DNA from: Nanobdellota archaeon
GTDB taxonomy: Archaea > Nanobdellota > Nanobdellia > Pacearchaeales > GW2011-AR1
DNA: 64,000 bases
NCBI GenBank assembly: GCA_018815925.1
Contig: JAHIWS010000020.1
Location: forward strand, 1 to 64,000
Direction of reading: 5' to 3'
Of this stretch, positions 4,953 through 38,751 are shown piece by piece. Position numbers and translations under genes: made by a program. The stretch's first letter is position 1, and the number at the start of each line of letters is the position of its first letter. The notes beneath the pieces are model-generated. The model ran no database searches. It worked only from the letters and a program-made list of their open reading frames with translations, and had not been told where the DNA came from.

Positions 4953-6974
4953 TTAAACTTGTTCAGAATCATCAAGAGAATAAGATTCTGAACTTGTTGT
5001 ATTATTTGTATTGTCTGTGGGCAATTTATTGTTTGTATTAGTAACAAGTTGTTTGTTTTTCCAAGGATCAGAAATAACTTGTTTATATTCTTTTATTTTT
5101 CTAGCTCTTCTTACTATTAAAACAACTACAACACTGATAGCAACCAAAAATAAAGCTATTAAAACTACCAAAAGCCATTTAAGATTTTTAGGCTCTTCTC
5201 CTTGTTCACAGTCTTCTGAACAATTATCAAAATTCTCGTCAGAATCACAGATTCCATCTCCACAATAAGAACCTAAAGTAATACTGCATAAACCACAATC
5301 ATTTTGACAATTTAAACAATCCTCCCCCATATTGCAAACCCCATCTCCACAATAATAATTAGAAGTTGATTGAATAACATTAAAATTAACTATTTTTGAT
5401 TTGGTGGTTGAAAAAGAAGCAGACTCACTAGCATATATTTGAAGCACATTTGCACCTAAAACAGGATATGCATAATCTGTTCCAGGAATAAAACCCACCT
5501 GAGCCCCATTATTTAAAGAATATTTCCAGTATTTTGCATTATTTTTTTCATCTTTAACTTGTAAAAGAATCTCATAATCATAAGCATAAGTTATATTTCT
5601 TGGTGAAGAAATAATAATATTTATTCTTGAAACACTAGGAGTGCCCCCATTCCCATGATTAGAGGTCACACCACACTTTCCAATAACCTCTCCTTTATTT
5701 TCCCAAACATTAAAACCCTCACAAACAAAAGAAATTCTTCCTTCACATTTTTCTTCTCCTAGACTTTCACAATAAAGCACAGGTGTAGGACCCCCTTTGT
5801 AAAGATAAGAATCAAGATAAGTAATATCGTGTATTGTCACCTGGCCATCTGCATTACAATCTGCAATCCCTAAATGATAGGGGATAGAACCTCCCTTGTA
5901 AAGGTAATTCATTAAAAAATCAATATCTAAATCACCAATAAAACCATCTTTATTTGCATCACACCTCAATAAATCAGAACTTGTATTTTCTTCTATAGCT
6001 ACAGGCCCAGAACCTGAATTATGTAAAAAATCATTTAAATAATCAACATCACTTGAATCTAAAATATCATCTGCATTTACATTTGCCAATTCAATTGGGT
6101 GATAAAGTTCTCTAACACCAGATAAATAATTTTGGATTAATTCTACATCTAAATCACCAATAAAACCATCTTTATTTACATCTCCTCTGATTAACTCACC
6201 ACTTGTATTTTCTCCTATAGCTACAGGTACAGACCCCCCCTTATGGATATAACTACTTAAATAAGTTATATCAAACATATTAACAACCCCATCTCCATTA
6301 ACATTTCCTAATTCTAAAGGATAAGGTGCGGGGCCTCCTTTATTTAAAAAATCTATTAAAAACACAATATCTAGATCACCAATAAAACCATCTTTAGTTA
6401 CATCTCCCCTTACAGGATTGCTTATTGTAATATCTAAGGCAACAGGTGCAGGACCTCCAGCATGCAAAGAATTATTTAAATAATCTATATCAGCCTGATC
6501 AATAATATTATTTCCATCTACATTTCCTAATTCTAAAGGATTTGGAGCAACCCCTCCTGAATTTAAATAATCATTTAAAAATAAAACATCTATGTCCCCA
6601 ATAAAACCATCTTGATAACAATCTCCCCTAACTAAACCTACACTAGTATTAACTGCAATAGACATAGGTGTGGGGCCTCCAAAATTAGTATAATTAAGTA
6701 AATAAGTAGAATCGTCCTGATCAATAATATTGTCTCCATTAACATTTGCTACCTCTAGAGGATAAGGTGCAATACCTCCTGAATTAATATAAACATTTAA
6801 ACGAGTTATATCAAAAAGATTAATAACCCCGTCACCATTACAATCTCCCCTAAGATAATCTTCAGGAGCAAAAAAAACTTGTTTAAATTCAGGAACAGAG
6901 AAAAAATAAAAAACAGCAAATATTAAAACAAAAACTAAAACAAAACGTATAATCTTCTTATCCCCTTTTTTCAT
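4953..6974 (-). CDS. Surface protein with five tandem dockerin type I modules, Cys-rich repeats and a C-terminal TM helix
   Basis: Ten D-x-(N/D)-x-D-G calcium-loop half-repeats (e.g. RGDCNGDGVINLFDITRLNVYI); CGDGVCNMGEDCLNCQNDCG repeats; TM helix near the C-terminus. Confidence 0.85.
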   Translation of the reverse strand: MKKGDKKIIRFVLVFVLIFAVFYFFSVPEFKQVFFAPEDYLRGDCNGDGVINLFDITRLNVYINSGGIAPYPLEVANVNGDNIIDQDDSTYLLNYTNFGGPTPMSIAVNTSVGLVRGDCYQDGFIGDIDVLFLNDYLNSGGVAPNPLELGNVDGNNIIDQADIDYLNNSLHAGGPAPVALDITISNPVRGDVTKDGFIGDLDIVFLIDFLNKGGPAPYPLELGNVNGDGVVNMFDITYLSSYIHKGGSVPVAIGENTSGELIRGDVNKDGFIGDLDVELIQNYLSGVRELYHPIELANVNADDILDSSDVDYLNDFLHNSGSGPVAIEENTSSDLLRCDANKDGFIGDLDIDFLMNYLYKGGSIPYHLGIADCNADGQVTIHDITYLDSYLYKGGPTPVLYCESLGEEKCEGRISFVCEGFNVWENKGEVIGKCGVTSNHGNGGTPSVSRINIIISSPRNITYAYDYEILLQVKDEKNNAKYWKYSLNNGAQVGFIPGTDYAYPVLGANVLQIYASESASFSTTKSKIVNFNVIQSTSNYYCGDGVCNMGEDCLNCQNDCGLCSITLGSYCGDGICDSDENFDNCSEDCEQGEEPKNLKWLLVVLIALFLVAISVVVVLIVRRARKIKEYKQVISDPWKNKQLVTNTNNKLPTDNTNNTTSSESYSLDDSEQV

Positions 6975-12042: not shown

Positions 12043-12993
12043 TCACTTCCAACCCATTCTAATAGGAGCAATTATTTTTTCTAAAGCTCCTGCAACCCCT
12101 TGTTTTAAATCAGCAGAATGAAGTTTTCCAGACTCAAAAGCTTTTTCTAATTTTTCATAAGAATCAAAATTTAAATTTCCCCCAAACTTGTCATCTCTCT
12201 TAACATCTAATTTTCCAAACTTAGAAAAAATAATTAATTTTGCTATTAATAAAAGAGGATTGTTTTCTTTATCTCCTTTTTTGCAATATGCTTTTTTAAT
12301 TTTCTTCTTAATAACCTCTTTGCTATCCCTAATAGAAATCAAACTAGATTCATCAGAACTACTCATTTTAGACCCTGGACCCTTTAAACTTGGAATTATG
12401 GGTGTAAAAAGATAAACACACTCTTGCAAACCAATTTCTTTGCCTTGGTCAATCCCCAAGGCATAAATCTTTCTCTGGTCTAAACCCCCCACAACAAAAT
12501 TAATCCCTAGTTTCTTAACATCTTCTATCTGCATTAAAGGGTATATAATCTGAGAAATTTTTGCATTTTCAATATTTCTAGCAACTTCCTGCATGGCTCT
12601 TACTCCACGATTAACAGTTAATTTTAAAGCTAATTTTAAAATATCTTCAAAATAATCTGGTTTTTTTTGAAAACTAGTTCCCTTAATAATTTCTGTTTTC
12701 AAACCAAAAGCTTTAAATCCTTTTTCCCAATGATTTACTTGTGTGTTGACAAACTTCCAATCTCCTTTTTGATTTAACCAAGTATGCCAATCAGCTAACA
12801 AAACCTTAACCTTTATTCCTGCTTTTTGCAAATCCAGTAATTTCAAGATTGTAACTAAATGCCCTAAATGAATTTCTCCAGAACATTCATAACCACAATA
12901 AGCAAATCCTCTCTTCATAAAACCCTTAATTTTTCCCTCATTAATTATCTCTGCACAATTTCTTTTTATTAAATCTTCCTTAGACATAATCAC
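12043..12993 (-). CDS. tyrS: Tyrosyl-tRNA synthetase
   Basis: SGEIHLGHL, GGLDQRKIYALG, GSKMSSSD. Confidence 0.88.
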   Translation of the reverse strand: MIMSKEDLIKRNCAEIINEGKIKGFMKRGFAYCGYECSGEIHLGHLVTILKLLDLQKAGIKVKVLLADWHTWLNQKGDWKFVNTQVNHWEKGFKAFGLKTEIIKGTSFQKKPDYFEDILKLALKLTVNRGVRAMQEVARNIENAKISQIIYPLMQIEDVKKLGINFVVGGLDQRKIYALGIDQGKEIGLQECVYLFTPIIPSLKGPGSKMSSSDESSLISIRDSKEVIKKKIKKAYCKKGDKENNPLLLIAKLIIFSKFGKLDVKRDDKFGGNLNFDSYEKLEKAFESGKLHSADLKQGVAGALEKIIAPIRMGWK

Positions 12994-13177: not shown

Positions 13178-13654
13178 ATGTACATGGCAAAAGTTAAAGA
13201 TAAGGTGTTCATAAACACAGGAGTCAGGTACAAGGGCAAGAAGATTCCAATATTCGACAGGATAAACATGATCAAAAATGATCTGAGGGAACTTTTACCC
13301 GAAGTTGAGGAAGATAGATATCTCTCCATGTTCAGCCACATAAGAAATTTCTTCTACGGGAAATTGCATTATGGAAGAAGAAATGATCCTGCAAATAAAG
13401 AAAGAAAAAGAGAATTAACAGAAGCTGAGAAGGTTATTCTGGATTATATGCTCAAAAATAAATTAAATCCCTCCACAACTTATCGCTGGTTTGTTGCCTG
13501 CAGACTCCCCGCTGATGTTAAAGAAAAATTAGAGAAGGGCCAAGTTAGCTTCAAAAAAGCATTTCTAATTGCAGACAATCGAAAAAAATCAAAGATGAGC
13601 AATACAGGACTCATAATGATAGAAGAAATAAATAACATCGTGAGGAGCTTATAA
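13178..13654 (+). CDS. Element protein coupled to integrase, possible DNA-binding half
   Basis: Stop overlaps the integrase start (TAATG). Confidence 0.6.
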   Translation: MYMAKVKDKVFINTGVRYKGKKIPIFDRINMIKNDLRELLPEVEEDRYLSMFSHIRNFFYGKLHYGRRNDPANKERKRELTEAEKVILDYMLKNKLNPSTTYRWFVACRLPADVKEKLEKGQVSFKKAFLIADNRKKSKMSNTGLIMIEEINNIVRSL

Positions 13655-14502
13655 TGGGAAATAAAAATAAACTTCCAGACATGTTCACAAAAGAACAGTT
13701 GATAAAGCTGTTTGAAAATATCTTTATTCCAAAACTTTCGATAGCATGTTTTATGGCCCTTATGTGTGGGATGAGAGTTAATGAAATTTGTAGACTTCAA
13801 ATTGCTGATGTTGATTTAGAAAGAAGAACTATAAAAATAAGAGATAGTAAAAATCCGAACAGGGCCAAACAAAAGGGCTACGGAAAAGATAGAATCGTTC
13901 CAATTCCAGAAGCAGCAATCTCTCCAATAAAAAAATGGTTCGAGATCATTGATGGAGGAAAATGGTTCTTACCCTCTGAAAATTCTCCTGACAAACACCT
14001 TAGAAAAAAGACAGTGCATATTTGGTTTGCAGAAGCAAGAAAGAGAGCCGGCCTTAATATTCCAGATTATAAGGTAGAATATAAAAAACCGACAAAGTAC
14101 AGGAAGGAAACAACCATCTACAAATTTAGATTCCATCACCTTAGACATTTCTATGCAACTTATGTTTACGAAAAGACAAGAGATCTTTATGCTGTTGCCA
14201 ATCTCCTAGGTCATAACCAAGTAACAACCACTCAGATTTATGCAAAGATCTCCGATAAAACCAAAAGAGAAACAGTTGATTTCGCATTTAATATGCCAAT
14301 TAAAACTCAATTGTTTGAAAAAAATCCAATAAACGCTCTAAACTACAGTATTCCGGAAATAGCAAAAAGAGAAAAAAGTCCACTTGAAATTCTCGAGGAA
14401 AGATTTGTAAGAGGAGAATTATCAGATATTGAATTTGCAAATAAATTAAGATTACTTAAATTGAAAAAAGAAATGGAAACAGAGAAGTATATCGAAACAT
14501 AG
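13654..14502 (+). CDS. Tyrosine recombinase/integrase
   Basis: GMRVNEICRL, FRFHHLRHFYAT, LLGHNQVTTTQIYAKI (R-HxxR-H-Y). Confidence 0.93.
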   Translation: MGNKNKLPDMFTKEQLIKLFENIFIPKLSIACFMALMCGMRVNEICRLQIADVDLERRTIKIRDSKNPNRAKQKGYGKDRIVPIPEAAISPIKKWFEIIDGGKWFLPSENSPDKHLRKKTVHIWFAEARKRAGLNIPDYKVEYKKPTKYRKETTIYKFRFHHLRHFYATYVYEKTRDLYAVANLLGHNQVTTTQIYAKISDKTKRETVDFAFNMPIKTQLFEKNPINALNYSIPEIAKREKSPLEILEERFVRGELSDIEFANKLRLLKLKKEMETEKYIET

Positions 14503-17201: not shown

Positions 17202-18080
17202 TTATCTTATCACTATCCTCTCACCATTTGGATCTTTAATAGAAGGATTTTCTTTCACCATCATCTTAGCAAAATCAAAATTATTCTCGTTAGCAAAAGT
17301 GAACCTTGTGGAATACCTCACTTGAAGATCTCTTTCTCGAACAACCCTCCGATAATCTCTTATTATCTCTTTTGGAGGCAGAATGCTGAATCTCCTCTTA
17401 TCGCAAATTATCAAGGCAATTTTTGGGCTAATCGGAAAATGCATTTCAAATCCAAAACATTCCAGGCCAAGGTTCCCATAAGGAAATAAATCAATTTCAT
17501 TATATTCTGCAACAGGATTATCAGAAGTCCAAAAGGGAAATTTTGTTTTATTGATTAAAAGAATCCATTTTAGATCTTTGATTCTTGATTTAAATTCATC
17601 AACTTCTTTAATAATATTGTTATGCATTTTCCTCAATGAATCTTTTTTCATAGATCCTAAAACTTCCTCTTTCAAACTTTCAGATAACTGTTCGCCATAC
17701 TTCTCCAAAAATTGTTTTGAGGTATCTTTTAATGTATTTCTTGTTTCTCTTGTACGGATCATTTGGTAAGCAACAAATTCTGCAATAATATCTTTTTCAT
17801 CCATAGTTAATTTATCCAAATCTTTAATTGAAATTAATTTTTGAATTATGGGATCAAATTTTGTTTCTATTTGTTGTAAAGTTTTTTCTATATCTTGATC
17901 TTCTGAAAGGGTATTATAAAATTCCTTCTCAAAAGCTATGTTTTTTATATTGGTTTGAAAAATTTCCTCTTTTTCTTTATCAAAAACCCAAGTATAATAT
18001 TCTTTGTCATTAAAATGAGAAAAATTTTTTAAATAAACTCTTGGAACAAAATGTTGAACCTTAACTTTTGTTTGCACCAT
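17202..18080 (-). CDS. DUF4238 protein
   Basis: QHFVPRVYLKNFS…WILLINKTKFPFWTSDNPV pattern; MVQTKVK start preferred to the track start at 18140. Confidence 0.75.
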   Translation of the reverse strand: MVQTKVKVQHFVPRVYLKNFSHFNDKEYYTWVFDKEKEEIFQTNIKNIAFEKEFYNTLSEDQDIEKTLQQIETKFDPIIQKLISIKDLDKLTMDEKDIIAEFVAYQMIRTRETRNTLKDTSKQFLEKYGEQLSESLKEEVLGSMKKDSLRKMHNNIIKEVDEFKSRIKDLKWILLINKTKFPFWTSDNPVAEYNEIDLFPYGNLGLECFGFEMHFPISPKIALIICDKRRFSILPPKEIIRDYRRVVRERDLQVRYSTRFTFANENNFDFAKMMVKENPSIKDPNGERIVIR

Positions 18081-18657
18081 TTTTTTTCTTTCTTTGATTT
18101 TCCAATGCAGGAAGGGTATATTTAACATAATTATATTCATCGATGCATTTTGCCAAAGTTCTTTCTTCTTTGTGAGAAAAATCCTTAAATTCCTGCCGCA
18201 TCTTTTTTAAAAAATTAAAATAATCCTCCGAATCCCCCGTCTTAAAACCCCAAGCTTTTCTGATGTATGCGTCCCACATAATGAAAACTTCTGGAATTGT
18301 TAAATGCATTAATTTTGAAGCGCCCGTATATTGTATGCCCTTGATTTTAGATAAAGTATCAAAAATATGTTTTATTTCTTTTTTATAAAAATCAAGATCA
18401 ATTTCCCTTATTGATTTTCCATCGAATTTTTTAAAGTAAGGTTTTAAATTTTTAACAACCTGTTTAAACTCCTTCAAATCAAAATCTTTCATAGCATATC
18501 TGAATGTAGCAAAATTCCATGTTGAAAGGATGAATAAAAATGCTTCGGTTTCAAAACCTTTTTCAATCATATTAAGGAACATTGGATAATAACTCCCTCT
18601 GTTTTCCAATTCATCAAATCTTTTCAAATTTTCTTCAAAGTCGTTTTTGTTTATCAT
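18061..18657 (-). CDS. HhH/DNA-glycosylase-like protein of unknown function
   Basis: IKGIQYTGASKLMHLTIPEVFIMWDAYIRKAWG resembles HhH-GPD-like proteins. Confidence 0.5.
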   Translation of the reverse strand: MINKNDFEENLKRFDELENRGSYYPMFLNMIEKGFETEAFLFILSTWNFATFRYAMKDFDLKEFKQVVKNLKPYFKKFDGKSIREIDLDFYKKEIKHIFDTLSKIKGIQYTGASKLMHLTIPEVFIMWDAYIRKAWGFKTGDSEDYFNFLKKMRQEFKDFSHKEERTLAKCIDEYNYVKYTLPALENQRKKKNGANKS

Positions 18658-19301
18658 TTTCCCTCACACCATTCGCAGCACTTCTTAGGACACTCTCCTT
18701 CAAGAAGTTTTAATGCATTATTCCAAGCTTTCTCCGCCATCTTAACATCAACTTTCATCTTAACAAGATCTGTATCAAATATAACTTCACCTGTTTCAGT
18801 AACTTCTCTTGGAACATAAAACAACAAGAAAAAATAATCTTCGGTTTCATACCCATTTTTTCTTAATAAAAAGTTGTAGATATTTTGTTGGAGTCGGTAA
18901 TGCTCTGCAGTATCTTCTTTCAATGCATATCCTCTTGTTTTATAATCAAGCACAATTAATTTCTTTCCTTTCTTCAAAATATTATCAACGGCTCCATGAA
19001 GTTCGTTTCCTTTCTTGTCCTTCCAACTGACTCCTTTAAAATTGCTCTGCCAAACTTTCATTTTTTCTTTATCATCAAATAGATCCATATTTTTGCATTC
19101 TTTGTTTTCACAAAGTTCTGGCGGCAATTGCCTTTTATCCCGAAATTTATCAAAATGCTTTTTCAGAATACGATCCATTCCCGAAGGCAAACTTGGAAAA
19201 ATTCCTGCAGGTCTTTTCCATACCCTGTGTTGTGCTAACCAAAAACACCGGGGGCATTCTTTCATAAGGTTTAGTGCAGAAGGAGAAAGTTTGTAAACCA
19301 T
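18654..19301 (-). CDS. Cas4/RecB-like PD-(D/E)XK nuclease with Cys cluster
   Basis: SPSALNLMKECPRCFWL, HGAVDNILKKGKKLIVLDYKTRG, terminal CPKKCCEWC. Confidence 0.8.
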   Translation of the reverse strand: MVYKLSPSALNLMKECPRCFWLAQHRVWKRPAGIFPSLPSGMDRILKKHFDKFRDKRQLPPELCENKECKNMDLFDDKEKMKVWQSNFKGVSWKDKKGNELHGAVDNILKKGKKLIVLDYKTRGYALKEDTAEHYRLQQNIYNFLLRKNGYETEDYFFLLFYVPREVTETGEVIFDTDLVKMKVDVKMAEKAWNNALKLLEGECPKKCCEWCEGK

Positions 19302-19302
19302 T

Positions 19303-21696
19303 TTAATTAAATAAATCCTCGAATTTTTTCCAATCTTTATTCAACTTGCCAGGATAATAATCATAATCTTTTCCTTCATGATAGTGCCAAACATTATTTT
19401 CTTTTACAGCAATTCCCCCAACATAATTTTTTCCAAGTTCTTTTATTTTTAAATTAAGATATTTTGCCTTATCTCTGGTATGACCTCTTCCTTCTGGCAA
19501 GGCAGTATCTCCTTTTTTTGTATCAAATATTCCCACCTTGTTATCTTTAAATAAAATTATCCAGTCTGGATAAAAAAGTCTCCATGCTTCTTCTTTAGTA
19601 TTCCAATACTTAATAGCATAATATTCTTTCCCATAATCTCCATTCTTAAACCACCACAAAATTTTATCTTTTTTTGCATCTATGTACTTCATAAATTCTT
19701 CCTCATTTATCTTTCCTTCTTCATCTTTAAGATAAAATTTATCTAACACGCAAAGATTTGAGGGAATCTCCAAATAATCTTCTGAGAACCAATATTCATT
19801 TAATATAGTAAAATCAATTGCCTCTCTTTCTTCTTGCAACCGCCTTCTATTTTTGATTATTTCTTTTAATATTGGCTTATATTCTTTTATTGATTGTGTT
19901 ATCGCAGGACGAATTATACTCGAAGCCCCCTTGTCCAAATCATTGATAAAAATTTTATACATGTAATTAGAACTATCCGTTAAAACTGACTTAAACCAAA
20001 CTCTAATTGCAGATTTTAATGTGGGAAAAGATCTCGCAATATTAGATATCTTTGCTTCATCTTCTGTTTGTTCTGCCAACAACCTATAGACATAATAATT
20101 AAAAGTTTTTTCAATATCATTATTAGACATCTCTAATTCCAAATCATCTCCAGTTTTATTGAATTCCATACTTAAATTATCGAATTCTATAAATTCAGCA
20201 TTCATAATTATCTTTCTTTTGATGATTGGTTTAAGATCAATTCCTTTTGCTAATAATTTTTTGGATCCTTTTCCGTACAAAAGATCATCTGAAGTTATTT
20301 TAAAATATTTATTCATTGAATTTAAGAAACTTCTTTGAAATTTAAAAGAATCTGCCAAATCTCCGTATTCTAACCTTGAAACAAAATCAGACTTCAACTT
20401 AATATTTTTTATCCCATTTTTTCTCCTAGCAGGAAGTATTGAGGGTTTATTTGGAGAAATTTCTTTCCACTTTTCACTAATTCTATTTCTATCATAATTC
20501 GTGAAAAGAAATCCTGTTTTGATTATCTGAGAATTTGAATAATCTTCTTTTCTTTGAGGTTCAGGCATTCTTAAAATTCTCCCTACCGTTTGAAGATCAA
20601 AGGTTTCAGATTGAATCTCTCTAAATCTAACCAAGATGTGAGCCCGCGGACAATCCCACCCAGTTCCAGCAGTTTGTTTAAATAAAAGAAAATCATGAGT
20701 ATCATCTAATTCTTCAAGAAATTCAGGTTTGGGGTGCTTATCAAACCACCGAGCAATTTTGATTTCTTCTATCCCTTTTTTATGTAATATTTCTGTTGCT
20801 ATTTGTTCCTTTGTTTTTTCCCCCAGCCCAATAAGATTAGAATCATCATTAGGCAATTGTATTAAAACTAAAGGATTAATATTTTTATTGAGTTTTTTAT
20901 ACTCTTTAACAATTTCTTCTCTTTTTTCTATAGCTAAGTCTATCATAGCTTCTTCTAAAGAACCTTCTTTGATTTCTTTTATATATTTTTTTATATTTTC
21001 TTCTGTTTGGACGATTACTTTTTCTTTTATTAATCCCTGTTCAACTACCTTTTCATGAGGCACTTTTACAAAACTATCATATTCTGCAGCCTCCGCAATT
21101 AAATTCTTATCGGGGGTTGCAGAAACATGCAAAACAACACTTGGATTAATCATTTCAATAATCGGTTTTGCCCCTCTTTCTGTAACATGTGTATGGGCCT
21201 CGTCTATAATTAAAATTATTTCTCTATTATCTTTGTGAGTATTTTCAACAAAATCCTCAAAATAAAAACCTGTTTCTTTTCTTTGAGTTTCATCTTCCGG
21301 CCTCCTCAAAACCCTAACTGTTGCTTCTGAACGAGTAACAATCTTTTGCCAATTTAAAAATAAAATTTCATTTTTTTGCAATTTTCCTTTATTAATATCT
21401 GAAAGAGTAAGGAGATTGTTTTCAAGGGTATTTTCAAAATAAGCTCTAAACTTATCTTTACTCTGCATAGCAAGATCATCATTAAACGTAACCCAAATAA
21501 AAGATTTATCTACATCCCATTGTGGGAGTTTATTTAGTCCCCTAATAAAATCTGAAACCATAAATGTTTTACCTGAACCTGTTGGAGCTTGAAAGACTAA
21601 AGGCAATTTCCTTTTTTCATTTTTCCATAAATTTAGAAACTTTTCAGTAAGTTTATCTCTTGCTTCTTTTTGAAATTCTAATGGTGTTATCATCAA
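19303..21696 (-). CDS. Type III restriction Res subunit-like helicase-nuclease
   Basis: FQAPTGSGKTF, IIDEAHTHV, HVSATP, QTAGTGWDCPRA, QTVGRILRMP; C-terminal YPDWIILFKDNKVGIFDTKKG nuclease motif. Confidence 0.88.
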   Translation of the reverse strand: MMITPLEFQKEARDKLTEKFLNLWKNEKRKLPLVFQAPTGSGKTFMVSDFIRGLNKLPQWDVDKSFIWVTFNDDLAMQSKDKFRAYFENTLENNLLTLSDINKGKLQKNEILFLNWQKIVTRSEATVRVLRRPEDETQRKETGFYFEDFVENTHKDNREIILIIDEAHTHVTERGAKPIIEMINPSVVLHVSATPDKNLIAEAAEYDSFVKVPHEKVVEQGLIKEKVIVQTEENIKKYIKEIKEGSLEEAMIDLAIEKREEIVKEYKKLNKNINPLVLIQLPNDDSNLIGLGEKTKEQIATEILHKKGIEEIKIARWFDKHPKPEFLEELDDTHDFLLFKQTAGTGWDCPRAHILVRFREIQSETFDLQTVGRILRMPEPQRKEDYSNSQIIKTGFLFTNYDRNRISEKWKEISPNKPSILPARRKNGIKNIKLKSDFVSRLEYGDLADSFKFQRSFLNSMNKYFKITSDDLLYGKGSKKLLAKGIDLKPIIKRKIIMNAEFIEFDNLSMEFNKTGDDLELEMSNNDIEKTFNYYVYRLLAEQTEDEAKISNIARSFPTLKSAIRVWFKSVLTDSSNYMYKIFINDLDKGASSIIRPAITQSIKEYKPILKEIIKNRRRLQEEREAIDFTILNEYWFSEDYLEIPSNLCVLDKFYLKDEEGKINEEEFMKYIDAKKDKILWWFKNGDYGKEYYAIKYWNTKEEAWRLFYPDWIILFKDNKVGIFDTKKGDTALPEGRGHTRDKAKYLNLKIKELGKNYVGGIAVKENNVWHYHEGKDYDYYPGKLNKDWKKFEDLFN

Positions 21697-21697
21697 A

Positions 21698-22114
21698 CTA
21701 ATTATCCTCCTTTCTTAAAAATCTACCCGTCATTCCAACAGGCATCTTAATTTTTCTAGGTTGTGAATATTTTCTTATTGATTTGAGATGTAAAACTGCC
21801 ATTTTCTTGTCTTCTCTTCCCTTGCTGTATTCTTTTAATTCAAAATCCTTTAAGAACATATCTTTAAAATATTTTTTTGGAATCTCGTTTAATGAAAGAT
21901 ATTCCACCTTCCCAATTATTGCTTCACCAAAAAGTGTTTTTTTATTCCGAGAAACATAAATAAAAAATTTAAGACCCCTCTTTAAATTACTTTTAGACTT
22001 TTTATTAGGATCATGAGATAAGTATTTTACAAAAATAAATTTCTTCTTCTCAAAGAGATTATTTGCCTGGGCTTCGATTAAGGGGAATACAACCCCAATA
22101 ATTTCATTTTTCAT
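21698..22114 (-). CDS. DUF365-like PUA-type protein
   Basis: IIGVVFPLIEAQANNLFEKKKFIFVKYL…FFIYVSRNKKTLFGEAIIGKVEYLSLNEI…GMTGRFL resembles archaeal DUF365. Confidence 0.55.
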   Translation of the reverse strand: MKNEIIGVVFPLIEAQANNLFEKKKFIFVKYLSHDPNKKSKSNLKRGLKFFIYVSRNKKTLFGEAIIGKVEYLSLNEIPKKYFKDMFLKDFELKEYSKGREDKKMAVLHLKSIRKYSQPRKIKMPVGMTGRFLRKEDN

Positions 22115-22799
22115 TTTTTAATTCCTTTAAAGTCTCTATTAATTTACAGGGGTCCTTGCCTATTAAAGATATTCGACATCTCCAAAACTCCCTAAGACCA
22201 AATTTCCAAGTTGCAATCTTCTTATTTTTTATTTTATCTTTAATATCCAAAATTAAAGAAGGCCTATCAATCCAAGAAACAAAATATTCTTCATATTCAT
22301 TTAAATTCATTAAATCATACAATTCTGTAGGAGTTTTATTTTGCCAATTTATTTTTTGACCATTCAACCAATTGTCCCTTTCATTAGTTTTTTTATTAAA
22401 ATAAATCTGTATATGGAAATCTCCCTTTAAATCTTCTATCAATTCTGTTCGTTTAATTATTTTTATGTCCCCTTTTTCAATACAAGATTTTAAATCTCCC
22501 CATGAATCTGGGATTAAAGAAGTTTTAACTTCTATGTGCCATTCATTAACATCCTTCTTTAAAATAAAATCTATATCCATATCTCCAGTTTCGTTTATAT
22601 AATTCGTTTCAGAAAAAATTATTCCATTATCTGAAAACCATCTCTTGAGAGTAATTTCTCCAAGATATCCCCTTATTCTTGAATCAAGTTGTACAATTTT
22701 ACTTCTATTTCTCAAATTATCTATAAACTTTTCTTTCAATGCCTTATCTATTGCTGACAAGACATCTATTTTTGTTATGCTCAACTTTAAAGGATTCAT
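22104..22799 (-). CDS. PD-(D/E)XK-type nuclease domain protein
   Basis: GYLGEITLKRWF…GDMDIDFILKKDVNEWHIEVKTS. Confidence 0.65.
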   Translation of the reverse strand: MNPLKLSITKIDVLSAIDKALKEKFIDNLRNRSKIVQLDSRIRGYLGEITLKRWFSDNGIIFSETNYINETGDMDIDFILKKDVNEWHIEVKTSLIPDSWGDLKSCIEKGDIKIIKRTELIEDLKGDFHIQIYFNKKTNERDNWLNGQKINWQNKTPTELYDLMNLNEYEEYFVSWIDRPSLILDIKDKIKNKKIATWKFGLREFWRCRISLIGKDPCKLIETLKELKNEK

Positions 22800-22800
22800 T

Positions 22801-24480
22801 TTAATTAATCAAATTGTAAATATTTTTATAGATTTCCAGAATTGGAACAGGGATAGTTTTAATAGTTACATTCTTCAAATACTCAAAGTCTTCAATAAAT
22901 TCATCTTGTCCCCAGCTAAAAACATAAACAGTTGTATCCTTCTTTAATTTTTTAACTGCTTCTATAAATTTATTAAATTGGTCTAACTCTTCTCTAAAAT
23001 AAACTGCCGTATACTTCTTTTTAAGATTATCTTCAAATAATTGATAATATTTTGTCTTTTTTACTAACTCAAGGGTATTTTCCGCAATAGCCAATAATTC
23101 TCCTGCATTATGAGCAAGTTCAACTTTATCTTCATCATTTACATTAAGGATATTATTCTTTCCAATAAAAAGTGTTTCGTAAAATTTAAGAGAATTTCCA
23201 TATTCTTTTATGGATTTTTTTATTCTTGGATAACAAACTTTTTTACAAATTTCACTTTCGTTATTTGTGCATAAAATAAATTGCCTTTTATTTTTCTTAT
23301 TGGATCTTATTATCGCCTCTCCAGAAGTTCCAGACCCAGCAAAAAAATCCAAGAATATTCCTTTCTCTCCCAAAGAAAGGTCGCAAATAAAATCAATCAG
23401 GCCAAGAGGTTTTGGATAATTAAATATATCTTGATTCAACTTTTTTTTCAATTCTTGACTTCCAGCAGAATTGCTAAAATCTATTAATGCTCGATAAGGT
23501 ATAATTCGTTCTCTTTTTTTATTTTCATTATCCACATATTGATATTGTTTGATATATACTTTCCAATTGTCTTTCACTTTTTTAAATACGATAAAATCAT
23601 TTTCAACGCCCCATTCAAATTTCTTTTTACTCCACCTCCAAGTATTGGGTTTTCCTTTTTTCCCTCCTGCCCAAATTTTGGTTTTATCAGGAGTAATAAT
23701 AGGATAGTCTCCTGTTTCATTATAATTCCCTTTATAATCCAAATCTCTCAAATAATATTTCCCTCTAAAATCAACAAACTTGTCAGAATATCTATATTTT
23801 GAATCATTATCAACATCAAGTTTTTCTTTATTAAAAGATAAGACAGAATAATCTTTTGCATAACATAACATATAATCAAACTCTATTGCAATTTTTCCAC
23901 TATCATGACCCGCACCTGCTTTACTTTTCCGAACAAAATTTGCCACAAAATTTTGCTCCCCAAAGATATTATCACAAAGTAACTTTAATTGATACAGTTC
24001 ATTGTCATCAATAGAAATGAAAATTACTCCATTTTTTTTAAGTAAACTCTTAGATAATTCTAATCTCTTTTCCATAAATGAGAGCCAATATCCATGTCTA
24101 AAAGGATGATCTTTTGGAACTTCAGTTCCATCAGGAAACTTGGAAATTATTCTCTTATCTTTATATCTAAATCCATCAGAACCCGTATTATAAGGAGGAT
24201 CAATGTAAATTACATCGATTTTTTCCTTATGAGTATAATTTAAACAAGTTAAGGCATGATAATTATCCCCTTGAATCAAAATATGTTGGGGTTTTCCATC
24301 ATCAGTCTTTATGGCCAAATTGGGAACTTCTTTAAGAACAGGCAATTTATTTTCAACATCATCTTCAAATGCTTCGGGAACATCCATCCAAACCAGACCA
24401 TACCTTTGTTTTTTTACAGATTTTTTAAGCCGTTCAATTTCTTTTTGTAATTTAAATATCTCTTGATCTTTTATCGTCAT
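22801..24480 (-). CDS. Type III Mod-like adenine-specific DNA methyltransferase
   Basis: IYIDPPYNTGSDGF and FLDFFAGSGTSGEA motifs (DPPY before FxGxG). Confidence 0.92.
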   Translation of the reverse strand: MTIKDQEIFKLQKEIERLKKSVKKQRYGLVWMDVPEAFEDDVENKLPVLKEVPNLAIKTDDGKPQHILIQGDNYHALTCLNYTHKEKIDVIYIDPPYNTGSDGFRYKDKRIISKFPDGTEVPKDHPFRHGYWLSFMEKRLELSKSLLKKNGVIFISIDDNELYQLKLLCDNIFGEQNFVANFVRKSKAGAGHDSGKIAIEFDYMLCYAKDYSVLSFNKEKLDVDNDSKYRYSDKFVDFRGKYYLRDLDYKGNYNETGDYPIITPDKTKIWAGGKKGKPNTWRWSKKKFEWGVENDFIVFKKVKDNWKVYIKQYQYVDNENKKRERIIPYRALIDFSNSAGSQELKKKLNQDIFNYPKPLGLIDFICDLSLGEKGIFLDFFAGSGTSGEAIIRSNKKNKRQFILCTNNESEICKKVCYPRIKKSIKEYGNSLKFYETLFIGKNNILNVNDEDKVELAHNAGELLAIAENTLELVKKTKYYQLFEDNLKKKYTAVYFREELDQFNKFIEAVKKLKKDTTVYVFSWGQDEFIEDFEYLKNVTIKTIPVPILEIYKNIYNLIN

Positions 24481-24588: not shown

Positions 24589-24861
24589 CTATTCTCCAGA
24601 GACTTTGAATACCTCTCTTAAAATGTTCCTCCCTTTTTTAGTAATTTTATAAAATTTAAATGAACGGTCTTCGGGATTAATACACTTTATTAAATCTTTC
24701 TGAGAAAGTTCTTTTATCGTCGTAGAATTATGAGATTTATATTGTTTAAGTGCCCTCATAATCTCTGGTTGGCTTAATTGAGTGTGATTAGAAAGTAGAT
24801 TAAGCGTTTCTTTCCTCCTTTTTGCTCTCGCAACAAAACCAATTAGTTTTAAATCTACCAT
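24589..24861 (-). CDS. Winged-helix regulator
   Basis: NLLSNHTQLSQPEIMRALKQYKSHNSTTIKELSQKDLIK…YKITKKGRNIL. Confidence 0.7.
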   Translation of the reverse strand: MVDLKLIGFVARAKRRKETLNLLSNHTQLSQPEIMRALKQYKSHNSTTIKELSQKDLIKCINPEDRSFKFYKITKKGRNILREVFKVSGE

Positions 24862-25915: not shown

Positions 25916-26518
25916 TCACCTCTTGCGTCTTATATCAAGAAATGCAAAAGCGAATCCTCCCGTCCAAGTAAAATTAATCAAAGCCTTAACAAACTCCTGG
26001 TTTTCTTCTGGAAGCACTACCTTATCTTTGCCCTCTTCTACAATCCACTCGATTTTATCGAGCTGACTTTCTAATTCAGGAATATTTGGGATTTTGATTA
26101 AACCTTCTTTGAAAAGTTTGTTTAAATAAAAATAAATTCTGCTTTGATCGTCTGCAAAATCATTTGATTTGAATTTTTCAATTTCGAATCTGCATTTATG
26201 AACAGTTACAAAATCTCTAATTTCTTCTATTATTTCATTACTTGCTCCACCAGGATTAATTCTGAATATTCCTTTTTCCACTCCAAAAAATTCTTTAATC
26301 ACTTCTTTAATTTTCTCTTTTATATCTTGTCCGATAAAATAATCTATAATTTGATAGTTCTCTTTTTCTATTTCTACTACTTGACTAAATGACCTCCCCC
26401 TTAAATTTGGGGATTGAACAAATTTACTTCTCTTAGTTTCAGGAATATGATAACCCCACACCATAGCAGACCTTTCTGTTGATGTCTGACCAATGCTACA
26501 TGCAATTATTTTTTTCAT
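25916..26518 (-). CDS. Terminase RNase H-nuclease-like protein lacking the ATPase, possibly degenerate
   Basis: DQSRIYFYLNKLFKEGLIKIPNIPELESQLDKIEWIVEEGKDKVVLPEEN resembles the C-terminus of large terminases. Confidence 0.45.
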   Translation of the reverse strand: MKKIIACSIGQTSTERSAMVWGYHIPETKRSKFVQSPNLRGRSFSQVVEIEKENYQIIDYFIGQDIKEKIKEVIKEFFGVEKGIFRINPGGASNEIIEEIRDFVTVHKCRFEIEKFKSNDFADDQSRIYFYLNKLFKEGLIKIPNIPELESQLDKIEWIVEEGKDKVVLPEENQEFVKALINFTWTGGFAFAFLDIRRKR

Positions 26519-27918
26519 TGAATAGCTCTCCGTATTTCATTTAAATCAAATAGTTTATTTGCTCTTTGAAAGACAAAAAACATCCTCATCATGATTGAAT
26601 CTCCATAGTCTGTTGATCTTCCAAGATTCTCTTTAATTTCCTCTTTTGTTAAAATGCTCAATGGCTGATCTTTTCCAGGATTCGCTTGTTTGATTTGTTC
26701 AAGATCCTCAATAATTTTTTCTTTTATTCTCGCATCAATATCCCTATAAATTCCAATTCTTCCAGAGTTAACATAATTCGCAAGTTCAAACCAACATTGA
26801 GCTTTTAAATTTCTAAAATTCTGTAAAGAGGTTTCTTTTTCTTCTTTAGACTTAAAGGGACTTGCGTTATTCACAAATCCTTTGACACCTGTTAAATCTT
26901 TTACTAATCCAAAACCCACACCATCTTCGTCAACTAAGCAGTGACTTCTTTGAATTTTATTTTCTGTTAATATCTTATCTAATTCTTCATTTGAGATGTT
27001 GTCCATTATTTTAATACCTGTGATAAAAAAACCATCCCAAAAAGTTAAAACGGTTTTGTCTCTTCCCCTGCCAGCAACATCAACTGTGCAATATTTCTGA
27101 CCCTTTTCTGCTTCATTCGTGAACAAGTCCATAATTGCATCATAATTAAAAAGTCTTGTAGGGTCATCGTCATATTCCCAATTTCCATAAAGCAATCTTT
27201 CTTTGCTCACTCTGTCTAATTTTTTAAGATTCTCCAAATGATGGGGGCTGATATAATGATTATCTTTTACAAATGCAGGCAAAAACTTTCTATACTTTGG
27301 AAGCCTATTTTCTTTCCAAGGTTTGTAAAAATCATAATACAAAAAATTCTTACTTGGATTAGAACAAATCAATAATTTTGGAATTAATTTAAATTCTTCA
27401 AGTTTGAATCTCAACCTACTCATTAAAATATTCTTTGCCTTGATTGTAACTTCACTTGCTTCATCTATCACAGCTCCGCAAAATTCAGTCGAGCCCAACG
27501 AATCAAATTCAGGATCGCTTGGATATAAGAATAAATCTTTCAAATAGATCTCACTTCCATTTGAAAAGGTAATCACGCCAGCCATTGAATTGTAATTATA
27601 ATCTTGATTGGGTTTCAAATTCCAGTCCCTACAAATCTGGAAGAAGGTCAATAATGTTGAGTCTTTAAGTCGTTTTAATACTGCTCGGCCCATAAGCCAT
27701 CTACTCCCTGGATATCTCAAACAAGAGAATGTTAACCATGCACATGCAAGGTGGCTCTTACCTCCACCACTTGCACCTCCGAATAAGAGTTCTGTAGTCT
27801 CTTTGTCTTGAAGTATCTCCCATGCCTGTTCTTGCCTCTTCGTCGGAGAAAACCTGATCTCATGTGTCTGACCCCTTTGAAAACTTGCAGGGGTTGTTTC
27901 TGGCGTGCTTTTTCCCAT
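26515..27918 (-). CDS. Phage-type terminase large subunit
   Basis: LLFGGASGGGKSHLACA Walker A, CGAVIDEASEV Walker B, VDVAGRGRDKTVLTFW RNase H domain. Confidence 0.9.
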   Translation of the reverse strand: MGKSTPETTPASFQRGQTHEIRFSPTKRQEQAWEILQDKETTELLFGGASGGGKSHLACAWLTFSCLRYPGSRWLMGRAVLKRLKDSTLLTFFQICRDWNLKPNQDYNYNSMAGVITFSNGSEIYLKDLFLYPSDPEFDSLGSTEFCGAVIDEASEVTIKAKNILMSRLRFKLEEFKLIPKLLICSNPSKNFLYYDFYKPWKENRLPKYRKFLPAFVKDNHYISPHHLENLKKLDRVSKERLLYGNWEYDDDPTRLFNYDAIMDLFTNEAEKGQKYCTVDVAGRGRDKTVLTFWDGFFITGIKIMDNISNEELDKILTENKIQRSHCLVDEDGVGFGLVKDLTGVKGFVNNASPFKSKEEKETSLQNFRNLKAQCWFELANYVNSGRIGIYRDIDARIKEKIIEDLEQIKQANPGKDQPLSILTKEEIKENLGRSTDYGDSIMMRMFFVFQRANKLFDLNEIRRAIQ

Positions 27919-28513: not shown

Positions 28514-30283
28514 TCATAAAACCTTATATTGTCCATGAGATACTTTCTCGATTATTCCTGACACCTCCATTGTTTTGAGTGCATTATTGAAATTAGTTTT
28601 ACCAATTCCTTTGTTAGCAGCTTTTTCTAATCCTTCATTTGTTTGAAATTCTTTTATTCCTTTTTCCTTAAACCATTTCTTTAAAACTTCAATACATTTG
28701 TCCTCTTTGTTCTTTTTGACGAATTCGCCAGAGTAAACCATTTTAATCTCATCTTCAAGAAATGTAACCAAAAGTTTCATCGGTGGCAACTCTGATTCAT
28801 TTCTATTCTTTAATTGTTTCAAAACCAAATTTCCTCCCTTCCTTTCTGCTTTAAGAATTGCATCTGCATAATTTGCCAAGTCGCTTGATCCCCTTAACTC
28901 ATCCATCTCATCTCCAGCAGATCCACCCTTACGATTATGATGTAACAAAAGAATTGAGCAATTGTACTTTTCGACTAAAGGCCTTAAAGTATCGACAAAC
29001 AATTCAGATACACTTCCTGCATCATTCTCATCAAAAGAGATGGCCCTTCTATAAGTATCAATCACTAATAACTTAGGTTTATGTTCTTCCAATATTTTCT
29101 CAATTGCTTCAATGTCTCTTTTTTTATCAATCTTAATTGAAGAAAAACAAATAAATCCAATATCATATTCTCCCGTCAACCCTAATCCCTTTTTAACCAT
29201 CGAAGTTCTTTTTTTCATTATCGCATATCCATTCTCTTTATCGAGATAAATTACTTTTCCTTTTTTGGATTTGAACTTATTTAAAAAATCATTACCTGAC
29301 GCAACAGCATAACATATCAAGATAGCCAAAAAAGTTTTCAAGACTCCTGCCTTTCCGACTAACAAACACACAGATCTATTTGCGATAATCTTTTCAATTA
29401 TCCACTCTAATCCTTCGGTTTCGTAATCTTTTAAATTGCCTTCCCAGATAATATTCAGATCAACTTTCTGTTCTTTAATTTCTCGTGGTTTTAATCCATA
29501 TTTTTCTTCTGCAATTTTTAAAACATTAACAAAATCTACTTTTCTTAAAGAACCACTTTTTGCATCAGAACAATCCATAAGACCTTCCTTTACTGCGATT
29601 GCAGCTGCAGGACCCCCACCAGAATTGCATCTAAAACAGTGCCACGTATTCTTAAAAGGATTTATCCAAAAGTTAGATTTTGTCTCAGAACCATGAATAG
29701 GATGGGAACCATAATATTCACTTCCCTGTTTTTTCAATCCAGCAGTTCCCCAAATATCTACAACAGATAAGTTATCTATATCCGAATCTTGAATTATTTT
29801 TGATACAGGAATTTCTTTCTTATCTTGGAAAGGTTTAACAAATTCAATAAGCTGATCATAATTAAGATTTGTTATTGGGATGTCATTCATGGCTTCATAA
29901 ATTTTTCCAGAAGGATGAACTGATCCTGGCCCTATAACCTGAGTTCCCTGGCTCTGAACCTCTCCAATATGTTCTCCCTCTAATTTTAAAATAATTTTTT
30001 TCTTTAACCCTTCAACAAAAAAATAATTATGCATTCCATTTCCTGTTTTAACCTTAAATGTCTGAGGTAACTTTCCATCTATCAACATCTGCAATTTTGT
30101 GCTATCAGCATCTATCACTGCAAGATTATCATATCCACATAAAACCCCATAATTCTCATCAGGAAGAAAATTCTTAATTTCACTGTAAGAATATGGTTTG
30201 TTAACCCAATCTGATTCAAAAGGCTTTTTCGTTCCCTTTTTTATCCTACAGAATTTTAAGTTTTGTAATGTTTCTGGTATCAT
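28514..30283 (-). CDS. Prim-pol/RepA-type helicase replication protein
   Basis: N-terminal prim-pol-like region (LAVIDADSTK…VKTGNGMHNYFF), CHC-like zinc finger, CLLVGKAGVLKTFLAI Walker A and AAA_25-type C-terminal half. Confidence 0.85.
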   Translation of the reverse strand: MIPETLQNLKFCRIKKGTKKPFESDWVNKPYSYSEIKNFLPDENYGVLCGYDNLAVIDADSTKLQMLIDGKLPQTFKVKTGNGMHNYFFVEGLKKKIILKLEGEHIGEVQSQGTQVIGPGSVHPSGKIYEAMNDIPITNLNYDQLIEFVKPFQDKKEIPVSKIIQDSDIDNLSVVDIWGTAGLKKQGSEYYGSHPIHGSETKSNFWINPFKNTWHCFRCNSGGGPAAAIAVKEGLMDCSDAKSGSLRKVDFVNVLKIAEEKYGLKPREIKEQKVDLNIIWEGNLKDYETEGLEWIIEKIIANRSVCLLVGKAGVLKTFLAILICYAVASGNDFLNKFKSKKGKVIYLDKENGYAIMKKRTSMVKKGLGLTGEYDIGFICFSSIKIDKKRDIEAIEKILEEHKPKLLVIDTYRRAISFDENDAGSVSELFVDTLRPLVEKYNCSILLLHHNRKGGSAGDEMDELRGSSDLANYADAILKAERKGGNLVLKQLKNRNESELPPMKLLVTFLEDEIKMVYSGEFVKKNKEDKCIEVLKKWFKEKGIKEFQTNEGLEKAANKGIGKTNFNNALKTMEVSGIIEKVSHGQYKVL

Positions 30284-38200: not shown

Positions 38201-38751
38201 ATTTCTTCCTCTGAAGGATCATGTTTTTCATACCCAAACATTTCTCTAAGATAATCTATTAAAATCAAAACCATACAACTTGCAGTAGTTCCTGCACTTC
38301 GTATTGGTCCTGAAAAACCTGCAACAAAATAATCCTTGCCTTGTCTTGTTTTTCTAAGTTTTAACCCAGTATAACCTTCAATTGGGCTTGAAACAACACC
38401 TAAAGTAAGGTATGCAAAACCAACCCTAACACCTGCATCAATTGCCTCAAGCAAATCTTTAAATTTACAAAATTTTTGTTTTGCAACCTCTTCTGCAATT
38501 TTAAATGCAACAGCCACATCTAATTTCCCATATTCTTTTTCAAGACCTAAAATCCTTTTTGCAATACTAGATTCTTCCATCTGAGGATAAATAGTAGATA
38601 TTAACCCTACAACCTTTTCTGCCATACTCATAGCAAGAGGAATCTCAACCTTATCTACAGGATCTAATCCTTTAGCCCTAGCTTCCTCTGCAACTTCATA
38701 AACTCCTTTGACCCCCTCTTCAATCATCTTAAAATATTTTTGAGTGTTCAT
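35290..38751 (-). CDS. polC: DNA polymerase II (PolD) large subunit DP2
   Basis: 1153 aa; HRGGTQDAPLVLNAKIDAGEVDDQ and RRDCDGDEMAVMLL; no intein seen. Confidence 0.97.
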   Translation of the reverse strand: MNTQKYFKMIEEGVKGVYEVAEEARAKGLDPVDKVEIPLAMSMAEKVVGLISTIYPQMEESSIAKRILGLEKEYGKLDVAVAFKIAEEVAKQKFCKFKDLLEAIDAGVRVGFAYLTLGVVSSPIEGYTGLKLRKTRQGKDYFVAGFSGPIRSAGTTASCMVLILIDYLREMFGYEKHDPSEEEIKRVFTELSDFHDRITNLQYMPTEEETLFLAKNLPIQVSGDPSEKLEVSNYKNLERVETNYLRSGFCLILGEGLAQKAAKGFRLLTSLKKRGFKSTGFDFLEEYIKIHEKRDVGKALDSPTYIKDLVAGRPVFGHPSRSGAFRFRYGRGRVSGFSAASVHPATMAITDSFLAIGSQLKIEKPTKGAAITVCDQIDGPIVKLFNGSVKKLKSIEEAKLFYPDVEEIIYLGDILFPFSDVANRNADLIKPGYVEEWWGLELQEKDKEFSRNLNFFNIDFDTAVKISREFEISLHPNYIFYWKEISPLEFFNLIEWLKVSKIDGKIIFPYAKIDQENFKQGKRALELLGIEHVVTIENVVLNKEHSKALLANLGLDFELVCNKKNLLRDFMDENKFKSGKNILEIVNSVSEFEIRDKSGEFIGARMGRPEKAKLRKLVGSPNVLFPVGKEGGRLRSIQAACEQGSVRSAFPIYNCDKCKKETIYSVCEICGCKTRKMYYCPRCKEKSFVACEEHEYKQTYCTFSLDINHFFNEAVGNLGLSKTEIPLLIKGVRGTSSEGHMMENLSKGILRARNELQVNKDGTIRFDATELPLVAFKPREIGVDVEKLRDLGYVKDIDGKDIVNEEQIIELMPHDILLPSSPDTPDEKADDVFIRVANFVDEELVRFYKLKPFYNVKNRDDLIGKMGVCMAPHNCAGVICRFIGFSKTLGLLASPYMHAAIRRDCDGDEMAVMLLGDVLLNFSRQFLPSHRGGTQDAPLVLNAKIDAGEVDDQILDFEFVKSYPLELYRAAEQKKHSSEVKIKNVKSLLDKGENPFIGMGYTHDTFDFNKGIRCSSYKSLGTMQEKLKHQMELVEKIRAVDTSDTARLVIERHFMKDLRGNLRKFSTQEFRCVACNEILRRPPLTGICPKCGGKIIFTVHEGGIKKYLEPALNLAKQYNLSPYVKQNLELVKGYIDSIFGKEAEKQTGLGEWV

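What the first reader, a model, noticed from the sequence alone, without database searches (positions are those of the whole stretch)
17202..24480. Seven-gene type III-like RM operon with added PUA-like, nuclease, HhH and DUF4238 components
Tightly packed leftward genes with overlapping or 1-nt junctions: Mod-like methyltransferase, PD-(D/E)XK protein, DUF365-like PUA-type protein, Res-like helicase with its own C-terminal nuclease motif, Cas4-like nuclease with Cys cluster, HhH-like protein, DUF4238 protein. Classical type III systems need only mod and res. PUA-like folds (EVE, ASCH, SRA relatives) can read modified bases, so the DUF365 protein could be a modification reader. This is the best candidate in the window for an undescribed defence system.
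Basis: partly seen in the sequence, partly recalled or inferred. Interest (0 to 1): 0.78.

Follow-up and report, generated by a model that had tools for sequence, protein, structure and literature searches.

The report
Type III restriction operon with add-ons
In the genome of a tiny archaeon, a classical DNA-methylating and DNA-cutting defence pair has extra genes packed into the same operon, including a small protein of a type known to recognise chemically altered bases and a Cas4-like nuclease; both turn up beside other, unrelated restriction systems in archaea, so they look like interchangeable accessories of restriction defence rather than one new fixed system.

Summary
The operon is real: seven leftward genes (24480-17202) joined by overlaps or gaps of 1-4 nt, around a bona fide type III Mod/Res pair. 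The DUF365 call holds (PF04033, 41.6 bits, cut-off 25.9), and an AlphaFold model places it in the PUA/ASCH superfamily near AF2351, ZmASCH and an archaeal McrB N-domain.

The seven-gene set is not conserved. The closest relatives have mod and res directly adjacent, and the PD-(D/E)XK gene has no relative in any collection searched.

The add-ons are not random neighbours, though. All 15 DUF365 copies examined (Nanoarchaeota, Thermococcus, M. jannaschii) sit beside an amino-methyltransferase or a restriction helicase, in three unrelated architectures, one of them again between type III mod and res. The Cas4-like gene lies within 5 kb of a DNA methyltransferase in 11 of 16 copies (0.8 expected, P about 5e-12), beside type I, II, III and IIG-like systems. 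A 2017 paper already noted solo-Cas4 beside RM in DPANN; no paper in the library mentions DUF365.

Best reading: a type III RM operon carrying swappable archaeal accessories, a probable modified-base reader and a DNA-degrading nuclease. New variant of a known kind; function untested.

The parts
22801..24480 (-). Mod: type III N6-adenine DNA methyltransferase, 559 aa (DPPY motif)
   Evidence: PF01555 5.7e-29; PADLOC MTase_III 8.5e-84; PDB 6k0w, 7dsu Mbo45V, 4zcf EcoP15I Mod
22104..22799 (-). PDX: putative PD-(D/E)XK nuclease, 231 aa; no relatives found
   Evidence: motif by eye (GE..DIDF..EVK); no Pfam family at E<=1, only SduA 0.0026 in PADLOC; no relatives in 371 phylum genomes, viral contigs, genome contigs, plasmids
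21698..22114 (-). DUF365 protein, PUA/ASCH-superfamily fold, 138 aa; proposed modified-base reader
   Evidence: PF04033 1.6e-10; 2kku profile match 3.4e-43; AlphaFold model pLDDT 83 matches 2kku, ZmASCH, S. marinus McrB NTD
19303..21693 (-). Res: type III restriction helicase/nuclease, 796 aa
   Evidence: ResIII 8.3e-20; REase_III 4.1e-11; 14 of 371 phylum genomes have relatives
18654..19301 (-). Cas4-like RecB-family nuclease, 215 aa, Cys cluster; RM-associated solo-Cas4 type
   Evidence: PF12705 7e-10; Cas4 models 1.7e-9; in 76 of 180 family genomes; C16, D95, D119, K121, Q138, Y142, C204, C209, C212 at least 95% conserved in 39 rows
18061..18657 (-). HhH-like/DUF6308-like all-helical protein, 198 aa, function unknown
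   Evidence: PF19827 0.0063; relatives in a type I RM locus (L112), with a nuclease-like gene (L113), and a remote one in a Natrinema BREX-5 locus
17202..18080 (-). DUF4238 protein (likely start 18080; longest ORF to 18140)
   Evidence: PF14022 1.4e-42; PADLOC DUF4238-Pers 4.3e-8
24589..24861 (-). 90-aa winged-helix protein 108 nt upstream; possible regulator of the operon
   Evidence: HTH_27 2e-4, MarR_2 and others, all just under cut-off

Best explanation
This is a type III restriction-modification operon to which accessory genes used by many archaeal restriction systems have been added. Mod methylates adenine at a short asymmetric site; Res (helicase plus nuclease) with Mod cuts DNA that lacks the mark. 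DUF365 is a PUA/ASCH-fold nucleic-acid-binding protein that most likely reads a base modification (first guess N6-methyladenine, because every partner methyltransferase found is of the amino type) and thereby tunes or redirects cleavage, with the neighbouring PD-(D/E)XK nuclease as a possible effector. The Cas4-like nuclease is a sequence-independent enzyme that degrades the cut DNA. SHOWN here: the type III core, the DUF365 fold, the recurrence of DUF365 and of the Cas4-like gene with restriction systems of different types, and the absence of any conserved seven-gene set. INFERRED: base reading, target base, the division of labour, and that the genes act together.
For: Core. DUF365 fold: profile match to AF2351 (2kku, 3.4e-43) and ZmASCH (1.5e-4); Foldseek 2kku 6.9e-9, ZmASCH 1e-7, S. 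marinus McrB N-domain 5.6e-5, weaker TRIP4-ASCH/dsDNA, THYN1-EVE/5mC-DNA and YTH hits. Invariant Y53 and S55 align with ZmASCH Tyr47 and Thr49, which bind nucleic acid in that protein; Tyr47 is also conserved in EVE domains (PMC5615036). Recurrence of DUF365: type III mod-[73 aa]-DUF365-res (L041), MTase/DUF365/Eco57I MTase/T5orf172 helicase (L042, L066), Eco57I-TaqI_C MTase with or without PLD-SNF2 helicase (L043, L053, M. jannaschii plasmid L040, Thermococcus L039, L057-L063); no other copies in nine genomes or records searched whole. Cas4-like: 11 of 16 copies within 5 kb of a DNA methyltransferase against 0.77 expected, P 5e-12; its sequence stays 50-89% identical (mostly over 60%) while the partner system changes completely, which fits a general nuclease and not the sequence-specific enzyme.
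Against: No experiment. The DUF365 sample is small: 15 copies in three architectures, and the Eco57I/PLD-helicase type may be one inherited association. ASCH/PUA folds also bind RNA, cleave RNA (ZmASCH) or hydrolyse modified nucleosides (YqfB), so fold alone does not prove base reading. The nearest mod-res pairs lack DUF365, so it is not essential. Cas4-like genes also occur away from restriction genes.
Confidence: 0.6

Rival explanations
1. Ordinary type III RM system in a defence island: mod and res do everything, and the other five genes are passengers that happen to be co-transcribed.
For: Nearest mod-res pairs (L017, L018, L019-L023) lack all five genes; PDX is unique; an integrase (13654-14502) and a terminase (26515-27918) flank the operon, so cargo turnover is expected.
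Against: DUF365 is beside restriction genes in all 15 copies and the Cas4-like gene far above chance. Gene overlaps and 1-nt gaps imply co-translation. DUF365 lies in the middle of the operon, between mod and res, in two diverged type III systems.
Confidence: 0.2
2. DUF365 acts on RNA or on gene expression: it binds mRNA or RNA (ASCH-like) to control Res synthesis, or cleaves RNA after infection, as ZmASCH does in vitro.
For: Closest characterised fold relative is ZmASCH, a single-stranded-RNA nuclease (PMC5615036); DUF365 sits just before res in both type III operons, a place suited to translational control.
Against: Of the ZmASCH residues tested by mutation only Tyr47 is invariant in DUF365; the residue aligned with Lys53 is K in the window protein and its Nanoarchaeota relatives but Q or G in the Thermococcus proteins. 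Gene order relative to the nuclease gene differs between systems (before, after, between), which does not suit a fixed regulatory position.
Confidence: 0.2

Closest known systems
Type III restriction-modification (EcoP15I, EcoP1I, Mbo45V)
   Same: Mod with amino-methyltransferase motifs and homology to EcoP15I Mod; Res with SF2 helicase and C-terminal nuclease motif; both in one operon
   Different: Two genes (PDX, DUF365) inserted between mod and res, three more genes downstream
Solo-Cas4 beside RM genes in DPANN archaea; UvrD-Cas4 fusions beside type III mod/res (Hudaiberdiev et al. 2017, PMC5704561)
   Same: Cas4-family nuclease without CRISPR, adjacent to restriction genes in DPANN; the paper states this for several genomes
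   Different: Here counted genome-wide in 15 genomes and across RM types I, II, III and IIG-like; no helicase fusion
Stand-alone EVE and ASCH proteins beside archaeal type I RM and SNF2-PLD-helicase/COG1743 methyltransferase systems (Bell et al. 2020, PMC7641849)
   Same: A small PUA/ASCH-superfamily protein encoded with a restriction system in archaea, including PLD-SNF2 helicase systems
   Different: DUF365 is its own family (no Pfam EVE or ASCH match); also paired with type III and T5orf172-helicase systems
McrBC-type modification-dependent restriction with PUA-like N-domains (S. marinus McrB)
   Same: PUA-like fold proposed to read modified DNA beside a restriction nuclease
   Different: No McrB GTPase; DUF365 is a separate polypeptide; a methyltransferase is present

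Membership tests
Type III RM | Mod subunit of the type III beta-class amino-methyltransferase family | tested here: met
   PADLOC MTase_III 8.5e-84; EcoP15I Mod 2.3e-38
Type III RM | Res subunit with SF2 helicase and C-terminal PD-(D/E)XK | tested here: met
   ResIII 8.3e-20, REase_III 4.1e-11; nuclease motif only by eye (PDW...FDTKKG)
Type III RM | mod and res directly adjacent | tested here: not met
   PDX and DUF365 lie between them here, and DUF365 in L041; adjacent in L017, L018 and most other relatives. Adjacency is usual, not required, so type III membership stands
Type III RM | ATP-dependent cleavage between two opposed unmethylated sites | not testable with these tools
   needs purified enzyme
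PUA/ASCH superfamily (DUF365) | PUA-like beta-barrel fold | tested here: met
   AlphaFold pLDDT 83; Foldseek 2kku 6.9e-9, ZmASCH 8.8e-8
PUA/ASCH superfamily (DUF365) | binds a modified base | not testable with these tools
   only fold and the conserved Tyr (Y53, aligned with ZmASCH Tyr47) support it
EVE domain | match to the EVE family | tested here: not met
   no Pfam EVE hit at E<=1; EVE structures only weak (THYN1 2.3e-2, TM 0.40; Rpa0253 0.21)
Cas4 | RecB motifs plus four-Cys cluster | tested here: met
   D95, D119, K121, Q138, Y142 and C16, C204, C209, C212 at least 95% conserved
Cas4 | NCBIfam cas4 equivalog score | tested here: not met
   28.9 bits, cut-off 65: Cas4-like, not CRISPR Cas4
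BREX / DISARM | PglZ, BrxC or DrmA/DrmB in the operon | tested here: not met
   no such match among the seven proteins

The most novel reading that the evidence does not exclude
One operon combines two opposite restriction modes: Mod/Res cut DNA that lacks the host mark, while DUF365 with the PD-(D/E)XK nuclease cuts DNA carrying a foreign modification, so phages cannot escape by either removing or adding base modifications; DUF365 would be a new family of modification readers shared by archaeal restriction systems.
Probability: 0.15. Interest if true: 0.8.

Novelty: new variant of a known kind. Interest (0 to 1): 0.52.

Why it matters
DUF365 has had a solved structure (2kku) since 2009 but no assigned function. 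Its consistent place beside restriction genes in three unrelated architectures gives it a concrete, testable role: a PUA-fold accessory of archaeal restriction. The Cas4-like count turns a qualitative remark of 2017 into a statistic and suggests that small archaea with few CRISPR systems share one general nuclease among many restriction systems.

Tried and rejected
(1) A conserved seven-gene system: rejected. (2) Finding PDX relatives: none in viral contigs, genome contigs, 371 phylum genomes, plasmids or PDB. (3) DUF365 in viral contigs or phages: none. (4) Weak DUF365-profile hits in G104, G265, G189, G116, G370, G301: set aside. G116, G370 and G301 look ASCH-like in housekeeping neighbourhoods, G104 is a GNAT-fused protein beside an ASCH-like gene, G265 is a sub-threshold hit inside a 985-aa protein, and G189 is a broken sub-threshold frame. 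This sorting was by score and reading of the sequences. (5) Structure of the HhH-like protein: single-sequence model failed (pLDDT 47), so no fold inference. (6) Flanking direct repeats as att sites of an integrated element: none convincing. (8) My first whole-genome search used a mistyped accession (PF04013) and is not used. (9) Considered and dropped: the Cas4-like gene as the specific restriction enzyme, because its sequence is uniform across systems of different specificity. (10) All DUF365 partners being amino-methyltransferases: weak evidence only, since such enzymes are the majority in these genomes anyway.
Full report
WHAT IS THERE. The window is G000:C13:1-64000, from a 0.93-Mb draft archaeal genome. 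A locus brought in by name as Candidatus Pacearchaeota (L064) is the same stretch as G263, a genome of the window's own family, so the window is most likely Pacearchaeota. Seven minus-strand genes run from 24480 to 17202 with 1-4 nt gaps or overlaps of up to about 20 nt. Profile searches confirm Mod, DUF365, Res, a Cas4-like RecB-family nuclease and DUF4238. The PD-(D/E)XK gene rests on motif reading and the HhH-like gene on a sub-threshold DUF6308 match. A winged-helix gene (24589-24861) lies just upstream. Mod matches EcoP15I Mod (2.3e-38) and Mbo45V (7.9e-41) in the PDB, so the core is type III.

IS THE SEVEN-GENE SET CONSERVED? No. Res relatives occur in 14 of 371 phylum genomes. Next to them mod lies directly beside res in most cases, including the two nearest (L017, 57%; L018, 43%); L022 has one unrelated gene between, and none of the five add-ons is found in these loci. 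PDX has no relative anywhere I could search.

DUF365. PF04033 genes are rare: 5 of 279 phylum genomes exceed the cut-off, one of which (G104) is a GNAT-fused, ASCH-flanked protein that I set aside. Two further members came from a profile search (G456, G544), two from plasmids (Thermococcus profundus, M. jannaschii), and eight from genome contigs, one of them the same gene as G263. In every copy the neighbour is a restriction gene. Type III: the window, and L041 with mod-73 aa-DUF365-res. Two-methyltransferase systems with a T5orf172 helicase: L042 (HARE-HTH/PDDEXK, MTase, DUF365, Eco57I MTase, helicase) and L066, where Pfam was run on L042 and L066 follows by the similarity of its genes. Eco57I/TaqI_C methyltransferase with or without a PLD-SNF2 helicase: L043, L053, L040, and Thermococcus L039 and L057-L063, where DUF365 follows or faces the helicase (in L061 and L062 only helicase fragments remain at contig ends). 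Whole-genome searches of seven of these genomes and both plasmids found no further DUF365 copies. DUF365 proteins from different architectures share only 27-59% identity, and the window copy is closer to L042/L066 (41-43%) than to the other type III copy (37%), which points to exchange between systems. Taking the background (about 5% of a genome lies within 5 kb of the three methyltransferase families searched), six Nanoarchaeota copies out of six would have a chance near 1e-8; this is my arithmetic and ignores relatedness between copies.

FOLD. AlphaFold on the window protein with eight relatives gave pLDDT 83 and pTM 0.78. Foldseek's best matches are AF2351 (2kku, itself a DUF365 relative by profile, 3.4e-43), Z. 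mobilis ASCH, the S. marinus McrB N-domain, TTHA0113, YqfB and TRIP4-ASCH with DNA; EVE and YTH structures follow weakly. Invariant Tyr53 and Ser55 align with ZmASCH Tyr47 and Thr49; Tyr47 affects DNA and RNA binding and is conserved in EVE proteins (PMC5615036). So DUF365 is a PUA/ASCH-superfamily protein. That it reads a modified base is inference.

CAS4-LIKE GENE. It is common in this family: 76 of 180 genomes, full-length copies mostly 60-89% identical, sometimes several copies or fragments per genome, including a second copy in the window's own genome beside an Eco57I-type methyltransferase. Neighbourhoods show type I hsdM-hsdS-hsdR (L125; HsdM-type genes in L129, L147), C5-methyltransferases (L121, L123, L128, L131, L136, L150), N6/N4 methyltransferases (L119, L145), Eco57I with PLD-helicase (L118, L141), a D12 methyltransferase (L126) and a GmrSD type IV gene (L142). 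In 15 genomes searched whole for three methyltransferase families, 11 of 16 copies lie within 5 kb of a methyltransferase against 0.77 expected (P 5e-12); at 2 kb, 9 against 0.4. Caveats: the genomes are related, and I chose them for assembly quality after seeing the fetched neighbourhoods. Genome sizes in that test are rounded except for G000. Hudaiberdiev et al. 2017 (PMC5704561) already wrote that solo-Cas4 in several DPANN genomes adjoins RM genes and that UvrD-Cas4 fusions adjoin type III mod/res. My result extends that.

HHH AND DUF4238. HhH-like relatives are few: 4 clear ones in 180 family genomes. One (L112) is in an operon with a NucS/YhcG-like nuclease, an HsdR-like helicase and an HsdM-HsdS fusion, with a Cas4-like gene 8 kb away; one (L113) overlaps a gene that looks like a small nuclease; a remote one lies in a Natrinema BREX-5 locus between the gene after brxB and pglX. 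This suggests, but does not prove, a defence role. DUF4238 recurs once near a Cas4-like/C5-methyltransferase locus (L124).

MECHANISM AND NOVELTY. The best-supported reading is a type III RM operon with exchangeable accessories. Reading of a modified base by DUF365 and DNA degradation by the Cas4-like nuclease are the most likely roles but untested. Bell et al. 2020 (PMC7641849) describe EVE and ASCH proteins in comparable places in archaea; DUF365 would be another PUA-superfamily branch in that role. No paper in the library contains DUF365 or PF04033, which covers only open-licence papers.

Noticed in passing
window 13654-14502 (+), 26515-27918 (-), 28514-30283 (-): A phage-type integrase, a terminase large subunit and a primase/helicase flank the operon, between a class I tRNA synthetase gene (12043-12993) and the archaeal PolD large-subunit gene (35290-38751): the operon may ride on an integrated virus or satellite element. 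No flanking direct repeats found.
   Followed up: partly
G000:C18:26329-26973 (L117): Second Cas4-like gene in the same genome, 74% identical, overlapping by a few bases a 1084-aa Eco57I-type methyltransferase and beside an integrase-like gene.
   Followed up: yes
L067 6136-6681 (Natrinema pNATPE02): Remote relative of the HhH-like protein inside a BREX-5 locus just upstream of pglX, annotated hypothetical.
   Followed up: partly
L142 9647-12572: Cas4-like gene next to a GmrSD-type (type IV) restriction gene: the association extends to modification-dependent restriction.
   Followed up: partly
L044 3035-4769: GNAT protein with a marginal DUF365-profile match next to an ASCH-like protein, resembling the GNAT-EVE/ASCH systems described in PMC7641849.
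   Followed up: no
window 4953-6974 (-): 673-aa protein with four dockerin type I stretches, unusual in an archaeon.
   Followed up: no
L133, L134, L144, L146: Cas4-like copies away from restriction genes, some sharing neighbours between genomes: possibly a housekeeping form.
   Followed up: partly
G000:C14:9106-9432 (L116): Broken remnant of the HhH-like gene with several stops, about 5 kb from another N6/N4 and HsdM-type methyltransferase locus in the same genome.
   Followed up: no
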